A stretch of 64,000 nt of DNA from Melieria omissa (lineage: Eukaryota; Arthropoda; Insecta; Diptera; Ulidiidae), in contig OZ020270.1 of the NCBI GenBank assembly GCA_963971225.1, forward strand, positions 31,877,823 to 31,941,822, read 5' to 3'. Shown here piece after piece: positions 1 through 54,770 of the stretch (its first letter is position 1; the number at the start of each line of letters is the position of its first letter). The translations under genes were made by a program, and so were the position numbers. The notes beneath the pieces are model-generated. The model saw only the letters and a list, made by a program, of their open reading frames with translations. It was not told the DNA's origin and did not search any database.

Positions 1-632
1 CTTTTCATAGGCACTCACTTGAAGCACTGTTTTTATCACTCTTTTTGAACTTTCGATAGACTTTAAAAAAAGGCCATACTTGCCATGGTTCCGTCCTTTG
101 GAAAATTGTTCACTAGTCTTCTGTGAGTACTGCCCTGAAGAGATCGGGTGCCCGATTTCGCCCGACTGGATTTTACAGCGATTTTTCTGTGGCCACCTCG
201 CGCAATTTTGTGTTTCCGGGTGCGTGCGTTCGAACAAGTTCGTCAAGATTTTGTTAGTGAATCAATTACACGCGATTATAATCGTTGCCAGGGCCTGCAA
301 ATTTGGATTTTGGCTTCATTTAATAAGTGATACAAGCTTGCAACTCCATAGTAAGTCGACTTTTTTTTTGGCGTATATTGCTGTAAGCTCGAAGTAAAGA
401 GTACTTTTGCTGTATGCGCAGTTCGCACGTACGAAAAACAAGTGGCTTTCATTTCCGGCAATCAGCTATCATGTATCCTTTGATGTAATGCTTTTGTTTT
501 TAACAAAATACTAATACTGTATCTGACACAAATTTTTTTTTAATTTGAGCAAAACGCAGTCAGTCGCCATTAGTCTTTGAGTTGAACCGCGCCAATGAAA
601 CAATTAGTTATTGAGAACAAAAAGCAGACTTA
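1..632. other. No gene seen; AT-rich flank
   Basis: I see no coding region, RNA gene or complete mobile element here. Short open frames occur on both strands but have no recognisable domain. The stretch ends at the TA dinucleotide that borders the Tc1-like element. Confidence 0.5.
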
Positions 633-2053: not shown

Positions 2054-2897
2054 TTGAAATATTTACTATTTCGAAGACAAGTTTGTTCCGACAATTTAAA
2101 ATTCGGCTTATCGTCTCTACATTGTTGGATTCGTTGCTTCGAATTTTTATTACATTTATTCTATAAATTGGAAATAAAAAAATGGCAAGCTCGATCAACA
2201 AGGGAAAAAGAATCAGTTGAAAAAAGAAAAACAGCAATCCAAGTGGCATTTTAAAACCAATTGGGTTTGAACGTTGACAAACCAAAACAAGGTAGTGGAA
2301 CTTCGAACGATGGCAACACAGCACGATTATTTTTCGAACATCATGGGAAATCTGCTCAAATTATTGGAATCGATCAAGATATTATTTATCGGTTTTACGT
2401 CATATTACAAGCAATTTCATGTGGATATGAAACCGATGTGAAAAAATTTAGGCAGTATTGCAAAGAATTAGCTGAAAGGATCGTACATGCCTATGATTGG
2501 TATTACATGCCTACCTTAGTGCATAAACTTCCAATTCACGGCCCAGACATCGTTAAACAATCAATACTACCTATAGGCCAAATATCCGAGGATGCCCAAG
2601 AGGCATGTCATAAATTTTTTAACATTTACCGCGTTGCTTATGCAAGAAAAAACTATTGGCAAAAAACGATGCAGGACGTTTTCAAAAGATTTCTGATTTC
2701 ATCTGATCCTTACATTTCTACTTGCCGAAAATTACCAGAAAAACCACTTAAGTCTTTATCACCATACAATCGATGTATTATCAGCTCCATCTGTACATGA
2801 CGAAGAAAAAGAGCCGGCAAGTTTGAACAGTTCCTCTGCCTCAGAGTCAGAAGCAGACGTAGATGTGGATTCCTACGAAACGAATTTTTTATTATAA
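2054..2897 (+). pseudogene. Uncharacterised repeat-associated protein, broken copy
   Basis: The main open frame (2261-2800) reads through GTSNDGNTARLFFEHH, WYYMPTLVHKLPIHG, LPIGQISEDAQEA and SSDPYIS. From memory these motifs recur in a repeated family of uncharacterised proteins from aphids, Hydra and other animals; I cannot name a domain or function. An upstream in-frame-like block (2054-2254; LHCWIRCFEFLL and EIKKWQAR) belongs to the same protein but is separated by a TAA. Downstream a frameshift near 2765 moves the acidic tail (SSASESEADVDVD, stop 2895-2897) to another frame. The two lesions make it a pseudogene. It may be a gene of an unclassified DNA transposon. Confidence 0.6.
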
Positions 2898-4316: not shown

Positions 4317-4992
4317 AACCCGCGGAGTTTCTCAACTGTTCCTTATATTTTCGGAGTCGCTGAACACGAATATGTAATTATTTTTTTCGGGTCACCTCTA
4401 GTTTGGGTTTTACAGGGTCTTGAAGTTACAAGCTACACCCCAATTAAAAAAATTAATTTAAATGGTTGAACTTATCCTGGTCTAACAATATTAGTATCAA
4501 AAGAAAGAGAATTATGTCTCCAACTAAAATCAAATAATTTTGTTGTAATTATCCTGGCGAAAGGATATAAAAATGTCCTTTTAAGAATGTATGCTTAAGT
4601 ATCCTGGAAGTTTTTCTACAAAAAAAATTGAAAAAAATATATTATAAAACCCTTACCATGCACCAACACATTGTGAAATTTCATGTTAATCAGTCCATTG
4701 GTTCAGCTGAAAAAAATGGTTGAAGTTTATTTCAACTCAAAAACATAAATTATTCCAAAATTTTTCACAGTGCAAACAATTTCAGCTCTTCACAAAACCC
4801 GCCCAGTTTCTGAACTGCTCCTTATAATTCCGGAGCCGCTGATTACGAATATGTAATTTGTTTTTTTGGGTCACCTCTAGTTTGGTTTTTACAAGGCCTT
4901 GAAGTTGCCAGCAACACCCAACTTAAAAACGAATTTAAATTGTTGAACTCATCTTAGTCCAACAATATTAGTATCAAATTAAAGGGAATCAA
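4317..4992 (+). repeat. Pair of dispersed direct repeats in the leader
   Basis: About 190 bp starting at 4317 (CCCGCGGAGTTTCTCAACTG) recurs at 4796 (CCCGCCCAGTTTCTGAACTG). Both contain GGGTCACCTCTAGTTTGG and AACAATATTAGTATCAAA. The copies differ at many positions, so the duplication is old. It lies within the errantivirus leader, upstream of gag. Confidence 0.8.
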
Positions 4993-7172: not shown

Positions 7173-9643
7173 TTATTTGCCAACAATTATTTTCAATTTT
7201 CGTTCTTTCGAACTTCCTTTTTGCACAGCCCACATGCAGTGTTTTCGTAGAAGAACTAAAATAAGAAAATCTAAAATTTGGACTCTATGGTTACAGCACT
7301 CACCATGGAACCATTCAGGTGTAGTATTTTTACAAGATTGTAAAACGTGTGCTTTAATACCAATGTTTTCAGGTTCTGCTTCGAAGATTTTATGAAAAAT
7401 TAAAATATGTTTTATGGATACATTCATTAGGGAATTGGAAGGAGCAAGAAGATTACCAAAATCAGAAATTGACTGATAATTTTTGTGGCAAATAAAAATT
7501 TCACTTGGAGCAGTCAAAACTTCATCCCTTTTTCTCAATTCGTCACCGCATTTTTCACAATTTAATTTAGGAATGATTTTGTACGCTACGTATCCAACAA
7601 AATACCTCATGGAAACCAGCTCTAAGTTAATATCTTTTGGATTACAAAAGGTGTCACCTACAAAATACGCCTCGTGCATCTCACTACTTAGATCAAGATT
7701 TTCCAGGATTTCATTGTCATTATCATCGCCATTAGTCTGCAAAACATCCTCATTAAAAGAAGCGCTCGAAATTAAATTAGTCATTGAATCTTGCGTCTCT
7801 TCACAATTGGTAGAGGAGCTAAACTTTATTATTTTAAAGGCTAATAACCTGGCTAAGATATTATTAAGTTCGGCTACAGAGGGATTACAGTTATTACCTC
7901 CTTTTTGCCTTAACACAGCAAACGTATTCTCCAACTTGTCCTGGTTAAAGGCCTTTGTCATAATAAAAAACTTGTCCGAATTATCTTTTAATATTTCATC
8001 TACAAGTAGAAGGACCGATTTTAAGGATAGTTTCATGCCATCTAAGAAGAAAACTCGTTTTTTTCATCAACAAATTTCACTTCCTCTAGATAATATAAAA
8101 ATGTTTGAATAATGTGTGCGATTCTTTCTTAATCTGAAGAGCAGATAGCAGTTATCTGCATACAAAGATCCACTATTCATGCAATCAAATATTTGATAAA
8201 TTTTTGCTATAAAATCAGCTGTGGATAACGCTACCTCTTGTGAGATTTTTTTAAATCCACTTACGTCTGAAATTGTTCTGATAGCAGCTTCAACTGTTTT
8301 ACTGAACACTTGCGTGGCAAATTTAACACGCATTTTTTCAAATGAATTTGGAAATATGTGTTGCCTAGTCAATTTTGGGCAAATTTTGGTTTTACAATTT
8401 TCTTCCCTCTCCCAAAGCTCTTGAACTACTTTAAAGCTAACTAAACCATCAGGCGTTTTCAAGTCGCATTTAAGCCAACCATTTCGCAATGACTTGATTA
8501 AATGTGGGAAATCGAACATGCAATAAATTTTTTGATTTTGAAATTGAAAGTATGGTTTCTCTATACATACGCCTAAGTCGGAGAAACACTTTCTATTAGA
8601 AGACCCCTGATCAGAAACCAAAACGTTCACTACTATACCAAAATTGCTTAAAATTTTAAGATTTTCTTTAATTATTTTGCACAACGTATCTGCTGTTAAT
8701 CCATTCTCTGACACAAAATAGTTTAAAATTGAACACCAACTCGAGAACATGGACTTCAACATAAATACACATACTTGCTTACCAATTTTTTTTGTTCTTT
8801 CGAAGCCTGTGCATTCAAATCCGTCAATTAAATCTAGTTTTTGATTGTATCGTAATTCTCTACGCATTGCCATTTCGTCCATTAAAAGAACCATATTATT
8901 TTCATTTTTTTCCTTCAACTCTAAACACATCTTTTTAATGAATTCAAAAGCCAAATTGTTGATACCGGGCTGAAGGAACTTTATTGGAGCCCACCGATTT
9001 AAGGTGCTGATATGTGGCAAATTGAAATTTAACTTATCTCTTAGGAAAGAATATGTTGATTGTGAAATATAAAAAATATTTTGCGCTAAATATTTCACTT
9101 CGTCAGAATATTCTTTTGGCCGGATGCTAAGTAAAAGTTTACAAAATGTTTTGGATTCCAAGTTGATATGTTTTAAAGAATCAATTGAATTTTTTAAAGT
9201 CTTTGAACAACAATTCTTGGATTTTAAAATAAAGCGCTTTTCTTTTCGCAATTTTTCGTTAATTTTTTTGAATTTTTTTAATAGGTCGCTGTATTTCTTT
9301 ATGTAATAATGGGTTATTTTGACGTTTTTTTCGCAATTACTGCATACTATGTCATCATAACGTGGTCGTTTCAATGAAGAATCTGGTTCTAAAAATTCTT
9401 CATCCGAAATCTCATGATCTTCGTCTAAGTTTAAGGTTGGAATCGCATCCTTTTTTAGAAACCTTTTTCCTACATAAGTACTGGAGACATAATTTTCACA
9501 AATATACAGTTTTCGGTTATAGTCGTCATAAGATATATTGCATTTTTCGCGCCAAATTTGGCCAAACACGAAATCAGCAGCGGTGAATCTAAATAATCTA
9601 AGATTCTCGCATTGTCGTCTCGATTTGTTGCAACTGCGAACAC
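7173..9643 (-). pseudogene. P-type transposase with THAP domain, broken
   Basis: Reading leftwards: a THAP-like start (about 9643-9480) with CVRSCNKSRRQC and a LYICEN end, where the usual histidine after CEN is tyrosine. Next come a lysine-rich coiled segment, then the catalytic region (ORF 8067-9569) with RPKEYSDEVKYLAQNIFYIS, LLMDEMAMRREL, SDQGSSNRK and FDFPHLIKSLRNGW. The C-terminal part (7173-8036) has NQDKLENTFAVLRQKGG and a terminal cysteine cluster. Lesions: a TGA just before the first THAP cysteine, and frame changes near 8110 and in an A-run near 8058. The family makes staggered cuts at P-element ends in a GTP-dependent manner; this copy is inactive. Confidence 0.92.
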
Positions 9644-9772
9644 ATCATTGAATTCCAGACATTGAAGAATTTCTATTTGTCTTTATATTTGTAGCCATAT
9701 TGTAACAAGCCGAAACACAAAATAGAATTACAATGTTGGACAATGGCGTTAAAATACTTTTTAAAAAAATTC

Positions 9773-33169: not shown

Positions 33170-34137
33170 CCTTGTGACCGAAAAGTTTCTGGAAATTTTA
33201 AATGAAACGCAAAATTCTTAATCTTAATCAATATTTATTTTATCTCCTTCAAAATATGCTCCATTAGAAGCGATACACATATGCCAACGTTTCTTCCAAT
33301 CATCAAAACATATATAAAATAAAAAAATAAAATAAAAAATAGGCGCTTTCCGGTATGGCTTTGAGTTCCCTCTGCGAATTCTGTTTTACGTCTTCTATGG
33401 ATTCAAAACGCGTTCCTCTGAGTGGTAATTAGAGTTTGGGAAACAGGAAAACGTCACACGGTGCAAGATCAGGTGAATACGGTGGCTGTTCGATGGTATT
33501 TATTGAATGTTTGGCCTTAAAATCGTTGATAATGTTGGCTCGGTGCGAGGGAGCATTATCGTCATGAAAAATCCATGAATTATCCTTCCACAATTGAGGC
33601 CGTTTACGGCGGATATTTTCACGCAAACGTCTTAAAACAGTCAAATAATAGTCTTTACCGACTGTTTGTCCTTCAGGGACGAATTCATGATGCACCACAC
33701 CACGAATATCGAAGAAAACAATCAGCATTACCTTGATTTTCGAGCGACTTTGGCGTGGTTTTTTCGGTTTCGGCTCGTCTTTTCCTCTCCATTCCGATTA
33801 TTGTTGGCTTCTTTGCATGTCGTACTCGTAGACCCATGTCTCGTTACCAGTTATGATGCGTTCCATGAAAGTTGGATCGGAATTTGCACGATCAAGCACG
33901 TCCAAAGAGACCTGTTCACGGTACTCATTTTGAAGAAAATTCTCAACAAAATCGCAACGCACTACTGAGGTGAACTGGTTTCAATAGCTGCCGTAAACAA
34001 ACTGTCTGACAGATCGCGCTCATTTTTGGCATAGTAATTAAGGACAGTGCTACCAACCTACAGAAACTTAAAATATCGAAAAATATACGGCGCGCGAATT
34101 TTAAATGAGAATTTCCGGAAACTTTTCGGTCACAATG
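33170..34137 (-). mobile_element. mariner-like transposon, degenerate
   Basis: 968 bp bounded by TA (33168-33169 and 34138-34139) with terminal inverted repeats TTGTGACCGAAAAGTTTCYG (33171 on; complement ending at 34136). The transposase on the minus strand is incomplete. Confidence 0.88.
33429..33990 (-). pseudogene. mariner transposase fragment
   Basis: 33429-33728 reads IVFFDIRGVVHHEFVPEGQT, FHDDNAPSHRA and QPPYSPDLAPCDVFLFPKL, the second and third catalytic aspartates of a DD34D mariner transposase. The preceding part (33730-33960) is broken, although an ETWVYEYD-like stretch is readable around 33800-33840. The N-terminal DNA-binding half is missing. Confidence 0.88.
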
Positions 34138-35008
34138 TATGTTCATTTTTTATAATCCCTAAGGCATTTGAAGAATTCGCTTTCTCTGCAGCAAATATAT
34201 TCTTTGATAAGCAAAATTCTTCACTGAACTCTTGATTTATAGCATTTTGAGTTTCATTGTCAATTTCAAACAAACTGGTATTATTGTCAATTATTATAAA
34301 TGAACCTTCGTCAGTTGGTTCACAATTGAAGGTTCCTGCCTTAAATGCTATTATTTTCATTGAGATCATGATCGCAAGAATATGGTCAAACTCAAAAAGT
34401 GAAGGATTATTGTTTGTAACTCCGCTTTTTCTTACCAAATAAAAAAGATTTTCAAGCGGGTCTTGATTAAGTCTTGATAATAAAAGAAAATTGGATTTTT
34501 CCACCCAGATATCTTGTGAAAGAGACAAAACGGAAGTAACTGATAAAACTATACCATTTCAACAGTATACAGTTTTAGGATACTGACAACTTTTGACATA
34601 GTTTTTCATTTCCTTCAAATAATTTTGGATATTGTTATTCTCACGAAGAGCTGATCGGAAAGGATTTTTATCAAAAAGAACATGGCTATTCAAACAATCA
34701 AAAAGTCTGTTTATTTTTTCAATAAATATAGCTGTAGGCAAAGCTTTTTCTCTGCAATCATTATAACAGCCATTTTCTGGTTGAATTGTTTTTATCCAAT
34801 TCAGATAACCTGCAAATAATCGACCAAGAAATATGTCCATCAGGCGAAGTTTCATCATCAGCAAATTTGTTGAAGCGAAAGCGATCGTCAACGAAAAAAG
34901 GTATACACACAAAAAGAAGCGCAAACAATTGAAATTGTGTTGTTGCTTTTGTTGGCTTTTTTGGTGGTTGATTATTTCATTGCGTGTGAAGGCAACGCAC
35001 ACAATTTT

Positions 35009-35054
35009 GCGAATATTTTCGACTAGCCGAAGTGCGTATGGGACCTGCTGCGCT
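35009..35054 (+). repeat. 46-bp repeat shared with 44641-44686
   Basis: GCGAATATTTTCGACTAGCC, then GAAGTGCGTATGGGACCTGC, matches 44641-44686 with three differences in the same orientation. The P-like element 35101-44556 lies between them. Removing it puts the two copies about 175 bp apart. Confidence 0.85.
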
Positions 35055-35976
35055 GAAAGCAAGGCGCATAACAGCAGCAGTAACATCATCACAGCGCACA
35101 CAAAGTAAATCCTAAGTAGCGCCACTCTTTTTTGGCCGGACACTAGTGGCAGTGTTGCCGCACAAGCAGTGCTACCCCATAACGATTTTCTGTTGGTTTT
35201 GGGAGTAAATTTTATGGCTAATTTTCTGACTGCTCTTTCCAATCAAGAAATAAAGAAATGTTTGAAAGATTAAATACCTTAACAAAACTGTAAAATTACT
35301 GGAGAAATACAATAGTTATTACCACAATTGATTAAAATAGACAACATTTGAATAAAAATTTCAATTTTTCTTTCCTAAAAATAATTTCATGATAAAAACA
35401 TAAAACAATCTGAATCAATATCAAGGTAATTTTGTTATTGTACAAGGTAAAATGCGAACGACAAAGTTTCTTGCAATAAATTATTTCAAAATTTGTGTGT
35501 TATAGTAATGTCGTGCATCTTCAGAGCTCTTAATACGTACTAAAAATATGTTTTTATTCATTTTGATTGGTAATATAAACTCACAACACGATAATTTAAT
35601 CAAAAGGTGATGAATGTGTTCAGAAGAACATTTTCGTATTCATTATTAAATTTCTTTGATGCGACTAAACTGAATGAAATAATTTTAATGAAATCATAAT
35701 CATTACAAACATTTCCCATCTTAATACATTTCTATATTCACCATCGATAACAAAAATTTCAACCCTGTCTTATAATAAGAAAGTGGTCAATTTCACCACA
35801 AAATGTGCAAATTTCACCTCCAATGCAGAAATGAAATGTCATTTTTGATTACATTGTTCAAAAGGAACAAAATATCGCAACGAAACACATTAAAAATTAA
35901 TATAATAAAGTGCAGAAGTGAAACCTGGTGAGTATCTATCAATCGTACTTTTTTAAATTGTATTTTCTCTTTTAGG

Positions 35977-37501: not shown

Positions 37502-38851
37502 AACGCAATCGAAAGTTTGATGTTTGGTTGGTTCAATTGAACAGCATCAATACACACATACATTTTATTAAACCCTTTTTCTAATTCAGCCAAACGCAAA
37601 AGCAGACATCGAATCAACAACCATAACAACTATCGGCAGGCGGCATCCTACTGCTAGCAGCATCTAGATCTGAAAATGTGTTTGCTTTTTCCACACCACC
37701 GAAGGGGTATGCAAAATGGCGCGTTACCGATGTTTTTTGGGTGCTCGGTTCCCCTGTAGGCATATTTTCACCCTTGTGACGTGAAGAAGGTGGAAAACAC
37801 CAGTCAACCTGATTCGATAACATCCACGAAAAGAAAAAAAAGAAAAAAACACCACCGTCGACAGCTTTGATGTCTCCGAAATTTTCTTCCACCTTCTTTT
37901 TGTAGCGTTGGGAAATCGCATACGCTGCGGCAGTCGATTTTGTGGTTAGCTTATCTGCAGAACAATGTTAAATTACATCCAACACATTAAAAAAATATCG
38001 GAGGATTTTTGTTATTTACCCTCGGAAGATATAGCTTAAACAACCAAAAAATGCGTTAAAAGACCATTTTTGATGAAATAACTTACCAAAACTTACAAAA
38101 TCACTAAAAGACGGGTGCCCACAACCGAACTAATTGCGGTGCCCACAACCGAATTTGGCAGCCATTTTGAGAAGTAGTGAAAAATTTGTTCGGGGTAAAC
38201 ATATTGGTTGTAATCAATATTGGATCACAAAGTATAATAAATTAACTAAATAAAAATGCATTTTACTCGCCTTCTCGATGGATTCACTTCGATTTATGAC
38301 ACCATTTAAAATGTGTAAACAAATTTTTGTCTTATTTTTTAAGCACAGAAAGATATATATGGTCCCAGCACAAAGCAGGCGTGTGTGTTCGACTTAGTAT
38401 TTGGCACAAAAAGATCGTGGTTCCATAATGAACAAATGGCCTTAGTCAAAAAAACCCAGCCTGCTTTCTATCAAGAGATACGAAGGGGTGCCCACAACCG
38501 AACTATGCCCACAACCGAACCTTTTACCCTATATATATAATTTATATATTAGATAAAAAAGATATATACAGTTAAGGTAACTTATCCACCTAAGCATATA
38601 CAAATCTAGGCAACAAAGTGGTGGGGAAAGGAAAAAATAAATTTGTTTGTGTTTTGAAATTGCCCTGAGAAAGTTATAATAAACAAATTAATGGGAAAAT
38701 TAGCAAATTAAATTAATTAGTAGTAACAATGTTGGCACCCTGAATTTTAGGAACGTCGGACAGACACTATTGAATACAAATAGTTTTAAATTATTTGCAA
38801 GCTGATATTCGAAATCCTAACTAGCAGACAATAGCGGACAACAGACGGACG
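37502..38851. other. Non-coding part of the P-like element
   Basis: No gene recognised. 37502-37950 may be 3' untranslated sequence of the captured gene. 38115-38521 contains four copies of TGCCCACAACCGAAC in two pairs (38116, 38139; 38489, 38506). The rest is AT-rich and ends in the GGACG target duplication of the Transib-like element. Confidence 0.45.
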
Positions 38852-38890
38852 CACAGTGTTTCGACTCCATACAAAATTGGGACAAAAATA
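38852..38890 (+). promoter_or_regulatory. Left terminal signal, 23-RSS-like
   Basis: Heptamer CACAGTG (38852-38858), 23-bp spacer (38859-38881), nonamer-like ACAAAAATA (38882-38890). Consensus for vertebrate signals is CACAGTG and ACAAAAACC. A weaker ACAAAATTG lies at 12-bp spacing as well. In family terms this would be the transposase-binding end; binding is inference. Confidence 0.6.
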
Positions 38891-39212
38891 GAAGGAGTGC
38901 TCTAAATTCGCTGAAAATTTGCAATCTGAATTATTTGGGGCTACTGACTTCAAAAATGATGTTTGTTTTCCAAAAAAATATATAGCTTTAAAAAAAATCG
39001 AATATATATAACCAAGTATGCTATCACCACCGAGCCCAAACCGCTGGAGCTATAATGATGAAATTTGGTCAATAGTTGTATTTTAAAAAGTCAACCTTTA
39101 AAAAGGAACGATTTTAAAAAATTCGACCTTGAAAGGCCGCAAACGGGGTTGTGAAGCTTATATAGACGGACATTGTGTTTTGGTCGGATTGTTTTAAAAT
39201 TTTGTATATATA

Positions 39213-40830
39213 CAGTGGTGAGCAAAATAATAAGAACAAGAATATGTATGCATATAAACTTCGCACAATAATTAAACCAATTAAAAAATTACCATACAAG
39301 TTTGCAGATCATTTTATTTATAGGTTCGTTAACAGTGGCTAAGCATTGTTTTATTTTCAAGATTTTTTGCAGCCCAACAAAAACATTTGACAAAAACATA
39401 GAAAACAAGTTGTTCAAAATAATAAGAACAAGTTAAATGCTAATGTTTTTTTTGCTATTTAAAATACCAAAACCACTCTATTGTTTAATATTTTGTATTG
39501 TAGCCCTTGCTGGTCTCCACTGCAATGCACCGCCTATCCATGGAGTCAATAAGGTCTCGACATCGTTGTACAGAGATTGCATTCCATGAAATTTGTGCCG
39601 CAGCCCATAATTCGTCCGTATTTTTAAATCTTTTAGTACCAATGGCGCGTTTTAAGTCCGCCCATAAATGTTCAATGGGGTTTAGGTCTGGACTTTGCGC
39701 GGGCCACTCCAAAAGATTAACATTTTGCGCTGCAAACCAATCTTTGGCCAGGCGAGATGTGTGTTTGGGGTCATTATCCTGTTGGAAAATGACTCCAGGG
39801 CCCATGACTTGTTGCGCATAAGGAAGCATTTCAGTGGACAGTATGTCAATGTATTTTTGGCTGTCCAGGTTGCCTTTTATGAGATGTATGGGCCCCACAC
39901 CGTACCATCCAAAGCAGCCCCATAACATAATGCTTCCACCTCCATGCTTAACAGTCTTCTGCGTGTATTTGCTGTCATACGCACGGTTCACAGGGCGGCG
40001 AACATACTTTTTGCCATCGGATCCAACTAGGTTTACCTTTGTTTCGTCACTAAAAAGTACGCTACGCCACTTCGATTGGTTTCTATCAGCTAAGTGCTTT
40101 CTGGCAAACTTAAGTCGTTCTTTCACATTTTTCGCCCGCAACATCGGCACCTTGCGCACCACCCGGCCGTATAAATTGGACTCCCGTAGCCTTCTGCGAA
40201 TGGTAGAGCTGCTAACTTTTGCACCACATTCAAGTCCAATTACTTCTGAGGACTTGAATGGGTCGTCTTTTGCCGCTTTTATAATTCGCCTGTCCATTTT
40301 TTCGCTCGTTTTCTTTTTTCGGCCTCGAGTTTCTGGTTTTGGCGTCCAATTTACGGCGTTATCGATTTTGCAAAGCGATATCTTAAATATCGTGGATATT
40401 TCGCGATATGTTTTTCCTTCTTCTACCATCGCCCTGATCATTTGTCTTTCCACATTTGTGCAAGTTTTACCGCGACCCATTTCTATGGTTAATGAACAAA
40501 TTTTTTTTTTTTTTACATGCATTATGCAAGCTTTTATATTTTTATGCAATAACTTACCGTAACGTTAAGTGAAATTTGCGAAAATGTTGCTTTAGAACAG
40601 GTTTGACAACGTGTTCTTATTTTTTTGCACAATAAAATTTTTCTCGAATCGATAAAAAAAGCGGGTTGCGGACAATGTCATACGATTTTTTGTAAAACAG
40701 TAAAATTTGTGTGAAAATGACAGTTAAGACAATGTGGGTAGATCAAAAGTTTTTGTAACAGCACAGTTTACTTAAAATATATGCCAACATAATAGTAAAA
40801 GTATTGTTCTTATTATATTGCTCACCACTG
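39213..40830 (-). mobile_element. Tc1-like transposon, apparently complete
   Basis: 1618 bp bounded by TA (39211-39212, 40831-40832) with ends CAGTGGTGAGCAAAATAATA (left) and CAGTGGTGAGCAATATAATA (right, minus strand). A second copy of the AATAAGAACA motif lies about 200 bp inside each end (about 39416 and 40610), the inverted/direct-repeat layout known from Bari- and Minos-like elements. It carries one intact transposase gene. It is inserted in the Transib-like element. Confidence 0.93.
39485..40480 (-). CDS. Tc1-type transposase, DD34E, intact
   Basis: 331 codons if started at MGRGKTC (40480), which fits Tc1 lengths of about 340; the frame is open to 40549, but the extra 23 residues lie in an A/T run and look untranslated. 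Residues about 1-110 form the paired-type DNA-binding region (MIRAMVEEGKTYREISTIF, SSSTIRRRLRESNLYGRV) with the basic RGRKKK. Catalytic residues: D in LFSDETKVNLVG, D in FQQDNDPKHTS, and E in SPDLNPIEHLWADLKRAIG, with exactly 34 residues between the last two. No stop or frameshift. It moves the surrounding element by cut and paste at TA sites. Confidence 0.93.
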   Translation of the reverse strand: MGRGKTCTNVERQMIRAMVEEGKTYREISTIFKISLCKIDNAVNWTPKPETRGRKKKTSEKMDRRIIKAAKDDPFKSSEVIGLECGAKVSSSTIRRRLRESNLYGRVVRKVPMLRAKNVKERLKFARKHLADRNQSKWRSVLFSDETKVNLVGSDGKKYVRRPVNRAYDSKYTQKTVKHGGGSIMLWGCFGWYGVGPIHLIKGNLDSQKYIDILSTEMLPYAQQVMGPGVIFQQDNDPKHTSRLAKDWFAAQNVNLLEWPAQSPDLNPIEHLWADLKRAIGTKRFKNTDELWAAAQISWNAISVQRCRDLIDSMDRRCIAVETSKGYNTKY

Positions 40831-42092
40831 TATACTCAAACAAAAATAACTAAATACGTATTTCAGCGTTTTTCAAAATTCGACCTTCAAAGGGTGGAAA
40901 GAGGGTGATAAAGTTGCTTGAAAGAAACCATTTTTGGTTTTATTTCCATAGAGCTTCACATAGAGATGACACAGCTATGAAGATGCAATGCTATGATAAA
41001 ATTTCGAGGATGAAACAAAATAACTGCCATTTTTCAAACCGTTCAGTTTATTCAGTTTCACTATCATCAGATATGATGTTTTTAATCCCACACAAAGAGT
41101 TCAATTGAAATAAAACTATTATACAAATAGTTTTCTCCCATAGTTTTCTTCTTAATTGTAAACAAGTCTTAATAATGCAAGGTAATTTTAACAAAATTGC
41201 CTTCCTCAACTTTTCCATATTCTCCAAAAAATATGAGCATTACATAAATCACACTTTAGCAAAAAATTTTTTAGCAATGGGAAAAATAGGATAATATGGC
41301 TCTAAACGGGTTAAACGGGTAAGCCAAACCCATTTTTATATAGAACATTGATAAATTGAGACATTGGATTTGTTAATATAGACATTTTCATATTTTATGA
41401 AAGACTTCCGTACGGCAACTCTGCCTTTAGTGGGCGGACCATGCCCATTTTAAATAGCGACAGTGCTACTATACTTTTTCTTTCCAGTTACATCACTTTC
41501 TGGCCGTTACAAGCTCCGTACCACAGTGAATGTACCGGTGGGCACCTCAATGTAGGGTACAAAAATCCAATTTTTTTTAGTTAGAGTAGTTTACAAAAAT
41601 TCGATTATTTTCCAAGATCGCAGGAAATCGCAGAATTTTTTTTATTGATCCAAAAGAAAAAAGTCCATTCTATAGGATTGCGTAAAAAAGTAGGTGTAAT
41701 AATGCGCAATTCGACATTTGCGATCTACAAAAATATATAGTTTTTATAGCTTTTAGTAAAAAAAATGTGTTTTTTAAATAACATACAACCCCGGTTTTAT
41801 TTAACTTTTTTTTAAAATAGCTCCTGAAATGATGTTTTGGACTCTTATAAGTGCATAGCAGTAACATTTTCTCCGATTGAAGCGAAAATAGTGTTCTGGT
41901 TACGTTTTCAATTGTTGACGCTCAAAACTGCATTTTATCACAAAACAATTTTTCTAGAATTTGGTCAACTTGTAAATGCTATAACTTTCTCAAAATTTAC
42001 CCGATTAAGAAATCATTTAAGATCTTGCTTAATGAAAGTATTATTTTTCAAATGACACCAATTTCTTTGATATCGGTGACATAAAATTTTTA

Positions 42093-42120
42093 TATTTTTG
42101 TCCCACTTCGGAACACTGTG
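42093..42120 (-). promoter_or_regulatory. Right terminal signal, 12-RSS-like
   Basis: On the minus strand: CACAGTG (42120-42114), 12-bp spacer TTCCGAAGTGGG, nonamer-like ACAAAAATA (42101-42093), the same nine bases as in the left end but at 12-bp distance. Confidence 0.6.
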
Positions 42121-42149
42121 GGACGCCCCAAAAGGAAGTGTATCTCATC

Positions 42150-53204: not shown

Positions 53205-54770
53205 TGACGGCGGTACACAAGCGTGTGTATTTGTGAGCTACGGACGGTAGCGTTGTGGCGTTTGACACTGCTGACGGCGCACAGTGCTTCGACTCCATAC
53301 AAAATTGCGGCAAAAATAGAAGGAGTACGTTAAATTCGCTGAAAATTTGCAGTCTAAGTCATTTTGGGCTAATGATTTCAAAATTTGTGTTTGTTTCAAA
53401 AAAAAATATATAGTTAAAAAAAAATCGAATATATATGGTTATATATTATCTTGTCATCACAGAGCCCAAACCGCTGGAGCTATTATGATGAAATTTGGTC
53501 AAAAGTTGTATTTTAGAAAGTCAACCCTTAAACAGAAGCGATTTCGAAAACGTCGACCTGGAAAGGGCGGAAAGGCGGTGGTGAAGCTTATATGGACAGA
53601 CATTGTTTTTTGGTCGGATTGTTTAAAAATTATGTATATGTATACTAAAAAAGCAATAACAAAATACATATCTTAGCATTTTTCTAAATTCGATATTTAA
53701 AGGGTAGAAAGAGGGCGGTAAAGTTGCTAAAGGCATATAGTTTTTGTTTATTTGATATTCGTAGAGCTTAACATGGAGATGAGGCAGGTGAATATGCAAT
53801 GCAGCTCAACCTATAACGGCGAGACTATTCTTCAAGACTTATTCTTCAAAATTGGACCTTCTTCAAAGTTATACATTCCTCCTTTTTTTTAGAATATATA
53901 TGCGTTAAATCACATTTTAGCTAACAAATTTCATAATAATGAAAAAATTTGGATTGTATGGCTCATAATGGGTTAAATATGCGTACCAAACCTATTTTTT
54001 ATAAAAAACATTCATAATTCGTTGCATTGCCTTAGTTAAACATTTTAATCGCAATTTTAACTCAAGCGATTTCTATACAAAAATCAACATTAGTAGTTTC
54101 GAAAAAATTGAATATTTTCCATAGGCGCAAAAAGACGCAAAATTTTTTTTACGGATTTAAGAGAAGAAAGTCCATCCAAAAAGGGCCATAAAAAGGATTT
54201 ACGCCAGTTGACGCCATTCGATATTAATTGCCTTTCTAAATTTGGTTCTTTTTAATTTTCATGGGTTTAAAAAACATTCATTTTTGAAAATTCGTACAAA
54301 AAAAATTATAGATGCTAAATAAAAAAAACTGATCAGTGGTCTCGCTCCTATCAATTAAGTTTTAATATTAAAAGAAATTGGAAGCCTATCTACAACAACA
54401 CATTTTCTACCATTTTTTTTATACAAGCACCTAAATTTCGTTTTTCCCCTTCATAAATTTTTTTAAAAATATATCCGACTTTGACAAGCTATATCTCCTA
54501 ATCTCGACAATTTTTCGATAAAGTATTTCGGATCCAGCTTAACTAAACAATTACCTTTAACATGATACTACTTTTGTCAAAATCCGCGATAATTTTTTTT
54601 CTTATTTTTGTCCACTCTCGAAGCACTGTGCGGCGGTACACAAGCGTGTGTATTTGTGAGCTACGGACGGTAGCGTTGTTGCGTTTGACACTGCAGACGG
54701 CGGTACACAAGCGTGTGTATTTGTGAGCTACGGACGGTAGCGTTGTTGCGTTTGACACTGCGGACGGCGG
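53205..54770 (+). repeat. Leader 66-bp repeat, interrupted by a Transib-like element
   Basis: A unit GGCGGTACACAAGCGTGTGT, ATTTGTGAGCTACGGACGGT, AGCGTTGTKGCGTTTGACAC, TGCNGAC occurs at 53208-53279, then twice after the insertion (54631-54762). The TSD of the Transib-like element (CGGCG) lies within the unit, so the intact unit downstream shows the empty site. Confidence 0.9.
53280..54630. mobile_element. Transib-like element, copy 2, with RSS-like ends
   Basis: 1351 bp flanked by CGGCG (53275-53279 and 54631-54635). Ends: left CACAGTGCTTCGACTCCATA; right (minus) CACAGTGCTTCGAGAGTGGA. Left nonamer-like GCAAAAATA at 53310-53318 after a 23-bp spacer; right ACAAAAATA after a 12-bp spacer. Same family as 38852-42120. 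No transposase: the only open frame of size (53347-53676) has no DDE or RAG-like motif. The empty site is visible in the neighbouring leader repeat. Confidence 0.9.

What the first reader, a model, noticed from the sequence alone, without database searches (positions are those of the whole stretch)
38852..42120. Transposon family whose ends look like an asymmetric 12/23 pair of V(D)J recombination signals
Seen: copy 1 has CACAGTG at both tips. On the left, ACAAAAATA begins exactly 23 bp after the heptamer; on the right, the same nine bases begin exactly 12 bp after it. Copy 2 (53280-54630) keeps the layout (GCAAAAATA at 23 bp; ACAAAAATA at 12 bp). Both have 5-bp GC-rich target duplications (GGACG, CGGCG). 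Known: Transib elements, relatives of RAG1, have 5-bp GC-rich duplications and RSS-like ends, usually described with a CACWATG-type heptamer and a 23-bp-type spacing at both ends. Inference: this insect family may show a 12/23 asymmetry of the kind thought special to jawed-vertebrate recombination. A-rich DNA makes chance nonamers fairly likely, so more copies are needed.
Basis: partly seen in the sequence, partly recalled or inferred. Interest (0 to 1): 0.9.

Follow-up and report, generated by a model that had tools for sequence, protein, structure and literature searches.

The report
Jumping genes with 12/23 antibody-type signals
Two families of young, non-coding jumping genes in this genome end in signals that look like the 12- and 23-spaced cutting signals of antibody-gene recombination, a feature already reported for a few Transib elements, the relatives of the RAG1 enzyme.

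Summary
Copies 1 and 2 belong to two related, recently amplified, non-coding families (A about 1645 bp, B 1351 bp). Each has CACAGTG at both tips, RCAAAAATA 23 bp inside the left tip, ACAAAAATA 12 bp inside the right tip, and 5-bp CGNCG target duplications (perfect in 33 of 34 A pairs and 29 of 29 B pairs). Two further families (C, D) with other spacer sequences show the same 23/12 layout. Across A-D the heptamer is invariant and the nonamer 94% (left) and 87% (right) identical, against 48-67% for spacers and 43-49% for the next 60 bp. A fifth family (E) is symmetric, 24/24. The genome encodes Transib transposases: RAG1-profile matches in uninterrupted frames up to 689 aa, one C-terminus matching HzTransib at E=4.7e-24. 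A degraded Transib fragment lies in the window at 2255-2797. No transposase was found between 12/23 ends among the places listed, so the autonomous partner and any functional 12/23 preference are unproven. 12/23-type Transib ends are already in print (Drosophila Transib5, four Anopheles families), so this is a new, unusually clear member of a known kind.

The parts
38852..42120 (+). Copy 1: family A non-autonomous element (1645-bp family consensus; here 3269 bp because of a Tc1-like insertion)
38847..38851 (.). Left target-site duplication GGACG of copy 1
42121..42125 (.). Right target-site duplication GGACG of copy 1
38852..38858 (+). Left heptamer CACAGTG, copy 1
   Evidence: 34 of 34 A pairs
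38871..38879 (+). Extra A-rich motif ACAAAATTG exactly 12 bp after the left heptamer (A and B only)
   Evidence: absent in the C and D copies read
38882..38890 (+). Left nonamer-like ACAAAAATA, 23-bp spacer, copy 1
   Evidence: 34 of 34 A pairs
42093..42101 (-). Right nonamer-like ACAAAAATA, 12-bp spacer, copy 1
   Evidence: 33 of 34 A pairs
42114..42120 (-). Right heptamer CACAGTG, copy 1
   Evidence: 33 of 34 A pairs
39209..40834 (-). Tc1-like element inserted in copy 1 (transposase frame 39485-40564, minus strand); not part of the family
53280..54630 (+). Copy 2: family B non-autonomous element (1351 bp)
53275..53279 (.). Left target-site duplication CGGCG of copy 2
54631..54635 (.). Right target-site duplication CGGCG of copy 2, at the start of a 67-bp tandem repeat that shows the empty site
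53310..53318 (+). Left nonamer-like GCAAAAATA, 23-bp spacer, copy 2
   Evidence: 29 of 29 B pairs
54603..54611 (-). Right nonamer-like ACAAAAATA, 12-bp spacer, copy 2
   Evidence: 28 of 29 B pairs
2255..2797 (+). Degraded fragment of a Transib transposase (C-terminal part) elsewhere in the window; not within A or B
   Evidence: phmmer to HzTransib 6pqn_A E=6.4e-46; no convincing tips found near it

Best explanation
Copies 1 and 2 are members of two related, non-autonomous Transib-type DNA transposon families (A and B) that were recently copied to many places, by a transposase supplied in trans. Shown: fixed ends with heptamer CACAGTG, a 23-bp spaced nonamer-like motif on one end and a 12-bp spaced one on the other, 5-bp CGNCG target duplications, and the same layout in families C and D. 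Shown: uninterrupted Transib/RAG1-like frames in the same genome. Inferred: a Transib transposase dimer grips the heptamer with its catalytic core and the nonamer with an N-terminal domain, pairs one 12-type with one 23-type end, cuts by a nick-hairpin mechanism and inserts with a 5-bp stagger. The two spacers differ by 11 bp, about one helical turn, so both signals face the enzyme on the same side.
For: Duplications: 33 of 34 A pairs and 29 of 29 B pairs perfect, consensus CGNCG. Across A-D, left heptamer 42/42, nonamer 51/54, spacer 86/138, next 60 bp 178/360; right heptamer 42/42, nonamer 47/54, spacer 39/72, next 60 bp 155/360; chance identity about 30%. Sliding a 9-column frame over 150 bp, no frame beyond the nonamer reaches its score on either side (best 47/54 left, 31/54 right). 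In the first 100 places, six of six spacer clusters with 4 or more members fall at 12, 23 or 24 bp. C right (12) ends with up to 2 mismatches: 345 matches, control 0; 9 of the 17 listed below 54 Mb of contig C1 pair with one of 32 listed C left (23) ends, inverted, 1183-3939 bp apart. Transposase: 52 of 68 scored RAG1-profile matches over cut-off (11 of the 52 only with neighbours), frames to 689 aa, 0 of 14 control genomes; 150 scored matches to the window's Transib fragment; one C-terminus to HzTransib E=4.7e-24 and to RAG1 E=7e-5.
Against: No transposase match lies inside a 12/23 pair: of 214 of the 218 matches, compared with 100 of 351 12-type ends, 100 of 345 C right ends, 40 A and 40 B left ends, only one lies within 6 kb, and it is outside its element. 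The one candidate tip read next to a transposase frame has a 22-bp spacer and other sequence, and its duplication could not be checked. The best-conserved columns are not exactly the nonamer: on the left they run on (CAAAAATAGAAGGA in all four), on the right they begin 1-2 bases before it, so the contact may differ from RAG's. The vertebrate nonamer ACAAAAACC itself is rare at these spacings: of 72 heptamer-nonamer matches (control 11) 2 are at 12, 0 at 23, 2 at 24 and 51 at 19 bp, nearly all the last from an unrelated element. A-D share ancestry, so they are not four independent origins; C, D and E rest on one fetched copy each plus pattern matches. Family E is symmetric 24/24, so Transib here does not need asymmetry in general.
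Confidence: 0.82

Rival explanations
1. The asymmetry is inherited, not functional: the transposase reads only the outer 13 bp or so (CACAGTGYTTCGA in A and B), and the A-rich motifs persist because the families descend from one ancestor.
For: Invertebrate RAGL proteins are predicted to rely on the terminal 15-17 bp and to be relatively insensitive to asymmetry (PMC7204232, passages). HzTransib TIRs are described as symmetric with little or no nonamer similarity (PMC8289069, passages). A-D are related, and between A and B the whole last 106 bp still align at 72%.
Against: Between A-D the nonamer (51/54 and 47/54) is more conserved than spacer positions 1-5 (20/30 and 19/30), which lie nearer the tip and inside the 13-bp block.
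Confidence: 0.3
2. The real layout is 12/12: the left end's ACAAAATTG at 12 bp is the working nonamer and the one at 23 bp is an extra A-tract.
For: ACAAAATTG lies at exactly 12 bp in both window copies, in 32 of 34 A pairs (1-base variants in the other 2) and in 29 of 29 B pairs.
Against: The C and D left ends have no A-rich motif at 12 bp but keep ACAAAAATA at 23 bp.
Confidence: 0.06
3. The nonamers are chance A-rich sequence.
For: The elements are A/T-rich; >=7/9 matches to ACAAAAATA occur at 39 of 3028 interior positions of an A copy. An unrelated long-TIR element carries CACAGTG-19-ACAAAAACC away from its tips.
Against: Exact spacings in four families, 1013 genome matches against 32 for the control, and higher conservation than neighbouring columns.
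Confidence: 0.02
4. The families belong to another superfamily with 5-bp duplications that resembles Transib by convergence.
For: No transposase was found between the ends.
Against: CAC tips, GC-rich 5-bp duplications and RSS-like bipartite ends, and Transib transposase frames in the same genome.
Confidence: 0.06

Closest known systems
Transib5 (Drosophila melanogaster) and Transib2, N1, N2, N3 (Anopheles gambiae), reported with 12/23-type TIRs (seen only through passages of PMC8355894)
   Same: Asymmetric 12/23 RSS-like ends; N names usually mark non-autonomous families (recalled), as A-D are here
   Different: Their sequences could not be read here, so identity with any of them was not tested. 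Families A and B have the exact RSS consensus heptamer CACAGTG at both tips and many near-identical copies
HzTransib (Helicoverpa zea; PDB 6pqn)
   Same: 5-bp duplication GCTCG (PMC1852546, passages); its transposase is homologous to those encoded here (E=4.7e-24 and 6.4e-46)
   Different: Described as having symmetric TIRs with little or no nonamer similarity (PMC8289069, passages)
Vertebrate 12RSS/23RSS with RAG1-RAG2
   Same: Heptamer CACAGTG identical to the consensus; spacers 12 and 23; nonamer ACAAAAATA is 7/9 of ACAAAAACC; one D-like end is CACAGTG-12-ACAAAAACC exactly
   Different: Here transposon ends; RAG2 was not searched for; no tested 12/23 rule
ProtoRAG (amphioxus, 27/31 spacers) and AanRAGL (4/13 spacers) (PMC8289069 and PMC9435367, passages)
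   Same: Asymmetric bipartite ends, 5-bp duplications
   Different: Other spacer lengths and second elements; they carry RAG2-like genes

Membership tests
Transib superfamily | 5-bp GC-rich target-site duplication | tested here: met
   33 of 34 A and 29 of 29 B pairs, CGNCG
Transib superfamily | CAC-initial, RSS-heptamer-like tips | tested here: met
   CACAGTG on the left in 34/34 A and 29/29 B, on the right in 33/34 A and 28/29 B
Transib superfamily | Transib/RAG1-core transposase encoded between the ends (or, for a non-autonomous member, in an autonomous copy with the same ends) | tested here: inconclusive
   Transposase frames present in the genome but none found between 12/23 ends among the places listed, which are only part of all places
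Transib with 12/23 asymmetric TIRs | One end with about 12-bp, the other with about 23-bp heptamer-nonamer spacing | tested here: met
   A, B, C, D; E is 24/24
Transib with 12/23 asymmetric TIRs | Nonamer conserved above flanking sequence | tested here: met
   the conserved columns extend a little beyond the nonamer
V(D)J-type 12/23 rule | Synapsis and cleavage prefer a 12 with a 23 signal | not testable with these tools
   Needs biochemistry
RAGL (RAG1L-RAG2L) transposons | RAG2-like gene paired with RAG1-like gene | not tested
   No RAG2 search was made

The most novel reading that the evidence does not exclude
In this lineage of Transib elements a true 12/23 pairing preference, working without RAG2, has held both spacer lengths fixed while the spacer sequences diverged. 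The 12/23 rule would then be a property of some Transib transposases and their nonamer-binding part, older than and separate from vertebrate RAG, and testable beside a symmetric 24/24 family in the same genome.
Probability: 0.4. Interest if true: 0.85.

Novelty: new member of a known kind. Interest (0 to 1): 0.58.

Why it matters
Whether the 12/23 rule arose with vertebrate RAG or was already present in a transposon is an open question. A 2021 review says 12/23 ends surround few Transib elements (PMC8355894, passages). Here are four related families with constant 23/12 spacers, exact RSS heptamers and many young copies, in a genome that also has uninterrupted Transib transposase frames and a symmetric 24/24 family. 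That gives a natural set of 12/23 and 24/24 substrates for a direct test.

Tried and rejected
Chance A-rich nonamers: rejected. A 12/12 reading of the left end: rejected by C and D. Long copies as autonomous members: by eye, L019 (4813 bp) holds an LTR-type insert with a gag-like frame and the 3939-bp C copy a reverse-transcriptase frame; neither was given to a family search. The CACAGTG-19-ACAAAAACC repeat lies inside a long TIR of another element (L082). Searches of phages, viral contigs and genome contigs gave no match; one search gave one viral-contig match (L001) with no convincing partner. Kapitonov and Jurka 2005 is not held. Literature on Transib in fruit flies: searches listed 20 of 605 and 10 of 1,530 papers, ranked by all terms; none of the ten holds the word Transib, so these searches cannot show absence. 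Not independent: copy 1 and L013 are one duplicated locus (99.9% identical with their flanks). A and B were sampled from the best 40 matches of 608 and 541 candidates, so left-end identity is biased upward. Rows dropped: for B 30 of the 40 scored copies were held as loci and 29 of these had both ends; for A 6 of 40 stretches lacked a right end. The draft also called the CACAGTG after the L084 frame a tip; it is only a candidate. Confidence was lowered from 0.85 to 0.82 for these, and the rival 'another superfamily' raised from 0.05 to 0.06.
Full report
What is there. The two copies are as described. Copy 1 carries a Tc1-like insertion. Copy 2 adjoins a 67-bp tandem repeat whose intact units show the empty target site. 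Outside the Tc1 insert no frame in copy 1 exceeds 87 aa, and no frame of 130 aa or more lies within copy 2: both are non-autonomous.

Genome. The window lies in a 490-Mb assembly, G000, contig C4. The named relatives of the Tc1 frame include Culicoides, Bactrocera and a fish, so 'insect' rests mainly on the set of element types (my judgement) and is not proven.

Family A. The first 249 bp of copy 1 give 608 candidates; the 40 scored are 98-100% identical. I examined all 40: 39 fetched stretches plus the window copy. In 34 both ends are in the stretch; 33 have perfect 5-bp duplications and one has 4 of 5. Base counts among the 33 by position: C 23, G 31, no preference, C 31, G 27. Left heptamer 34/34, left 23-nonamer 34/34, right heptamer 33/34, right 12-nonamer 33/34. 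Two of the 34 (copy 1 and L013) are one duplicated locus. In 30 of the 34 (lengths 1550-1700 bp) the mismatch rate is 0.26% in left 1-39, 0.54% in 40-250, 1.46% in 251-1300, 1.54% in the last 230-29 bp and 0.71% in the last 28 bp. The left values are biased, because the left end was the query.

Family B. Copy 2's first 251 bp give 541 candidates, 40 scored, 98-100% identical. Of the 30 loci held, 29 have both ends, all 29 with perfect duplications, again CGNCG. GCAAAAATA at 23 in 29/29 and ACAAAAATA at 12 in 28/29.

Conservation test. A and B are 81% alike over the first 520 bp and 72% over the last 106 bp; between lies a stretch near chance. Their last 28 bp match 7/7 in the heptamer, 6/12 in the spacer and 9/9 in the nonamer. 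A genome-wide exact pattern CACAGTG-N(5..30)-ACAAAAATA gives 1013 places against 32 for the reversed pattern. The first 100 listed have spacers of 12 (32), 23 (43), 24 (14) and others (11), and the six spacer clusters of 4 or more members are at 12, 23 or 24. One copy each of C, D and E was read. C is 23/12 (flanks CAGCG and CAGTG, 4 of 5), D is 23/12 (CGTCG twice), E is 24/24 (CGCCG twice). C's 12-type right end, up to 2 mismatches, has 345 matches, control 0. Nine of the 17 such ends listed below 54 Mb on C1 pair with one of 32 listed C left ends. Pairwise over A-D, left: heptamer 42/42, spacer 20/30 and 66/108, nonamer 51/54, next 60 bp 178/360. Right: heptamer 42/42, spacer 19/30 and 20/42, nonamer 47/54, next 60 bp 155/360. 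Sliding a 9-column frame over 150 bp from the tip, no frame beyond the nonamer reaches its score: best 47/54 left and 31/54 right. The peak is not exactly the nonamer: on the left it runs on through GAAGGA, on the right it starts 1-2 bases earlier. C and D have no A-rich motif at left position 12, which removes the 12/12 reading suggested by A and B. Against a close RSS match: the vertebrate nonamer ACAAAAACC follows CACAGTG at 5-30 bp in 72 places (control 11), of which 2 are at 12, 0 at 23, 2 at 24 and 51 at 19, nearly all the last from an unrelated element.

Transposase. The Pfam RAG1 profile (PF12940) gives 68 scored matches of 166 candidates in G000, 52 over the cut-off (11 of them only with neighbours in the frame), 0 of 14 control genomes. 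All match profile positions 524-640 of 653, with open frames up to 689 aa. The C-terminus of one of them (L084) matches HzTransib at 4.7e-24 and RAG1 at 7e-5. About 530 bp after its stop codon there is a candidate tip, CACAGTG followed by CG, with GCAAAATTA 22 bp inside; the stretch ends there, so neither the duplication nor the other end was checked. The window itself has a degraded Transib fragment at 2255-2797 (6.4e-46). Used as a query it gives 1656 candidates, of which the 150 scored range from 100% to 44% identity, some with frames over 700 aa. I compared 214 of the 218 matches (two on small contigs and two overlaps left out) with 100 of 351 12-type ends, 100 of 345 C right ends and the 40 A and 40 B left ends. 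One lies within 6 kb, 820 bp outside an A copy. So the transposase that moves A-D is not identified, and only part of the ends could be compared.

Known and new. From passages only: PMC8355894 states in a figure legend and the text that Transib5 of Drosophila melanogaster and Transib2, N1, N2 and N3 of Anopheles gambiae have 12/23 asymmetric TIRs. PMC9435367 says subgroup I Transibs all have asymmetric TIRs, subgroup II both kinds, and that both groups have a nonamer-binding domain equivalent. PMC8289069 says most Transib families are symmetric and that a GC bias of the duplications is shared by ProtoRAG, Transib and RAG. PMC7204232 gives 5-bp duplications and CAC tips. Thus the kind is known; these families add a clean, multi-copy, multi-family case. 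Whether A-E themselves are already in a repeat library could not be checked.

Mechanism. Shown: mobility with a 5-bp stagger at CGNCG sites, fixed bipartite ends, unequal spacers. Inferred from RAG and HzTransib (hairpin cleavage, PMC6941560, passages): heptamer cleavage by nick and hairpin, nonamer anchoring, and 12 with 23 synapsis. Whether unequal spacing matters to the enzyme is open; family E shows that a symmetric pair is also found in this genome.

Noticed in passing
window 2255-2797 (+): Degraded C-terminal fragment of a Transib transposase (HzTransib E=6.4e-46); 150 scored relatives in the genome at 100-44% identity; no convincing tips nearby.
   Followed up: partly
G000 family E, L081:41-1897: A symmetric 24/24 family with CACAGTG tips and nonamers ACAAAAATA and ACAAAAACG in the same genome: a natural control for the 12/23 families.
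   Followed up: partly
G000:C3:98405848-98405875: A D-like right end that is a perfect consensus 12RSS: CACAGTG, 12 bp, ACAAAAACC.
   Followed up: no
L082 and window 4766-4800: A different element with long TIRs carrying CACAGTG-19-ACAAAAACC inside the TIR, not at the tip; L082 has broken frames of a kind I did not identify. The window stretch is a related sequence.
   Followed up: partly
window 38871-38890 and 53299-53318: In A and B the left end looks like an 11-bp quasi-repeat of the nonamer (ACAAAATTGGG then ACAAAAATAGA in A), one helical turn apart; it may show how a 12-type end can become a 23-type end.
   Followed up: partly
window 7173-9644 (-) and 34130-35242 (-): P-element-like transposase frames (TNP-like RNase H domains; 8067-9644 also has a THAP match just below Pfam's cut-off).
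   Followed up: no
G000:C4:34100379-34176878: Cluster of repeated Transib fragments within about 76 kb, beside a family A copy.
   Followed up: no
L001:9377-9404: A viral-collection contig with CACAGTG-12-TCAAAAATA; single match, no convincing inverted partner in the 11.7 kb held; probably chance.
   Followed up: partly
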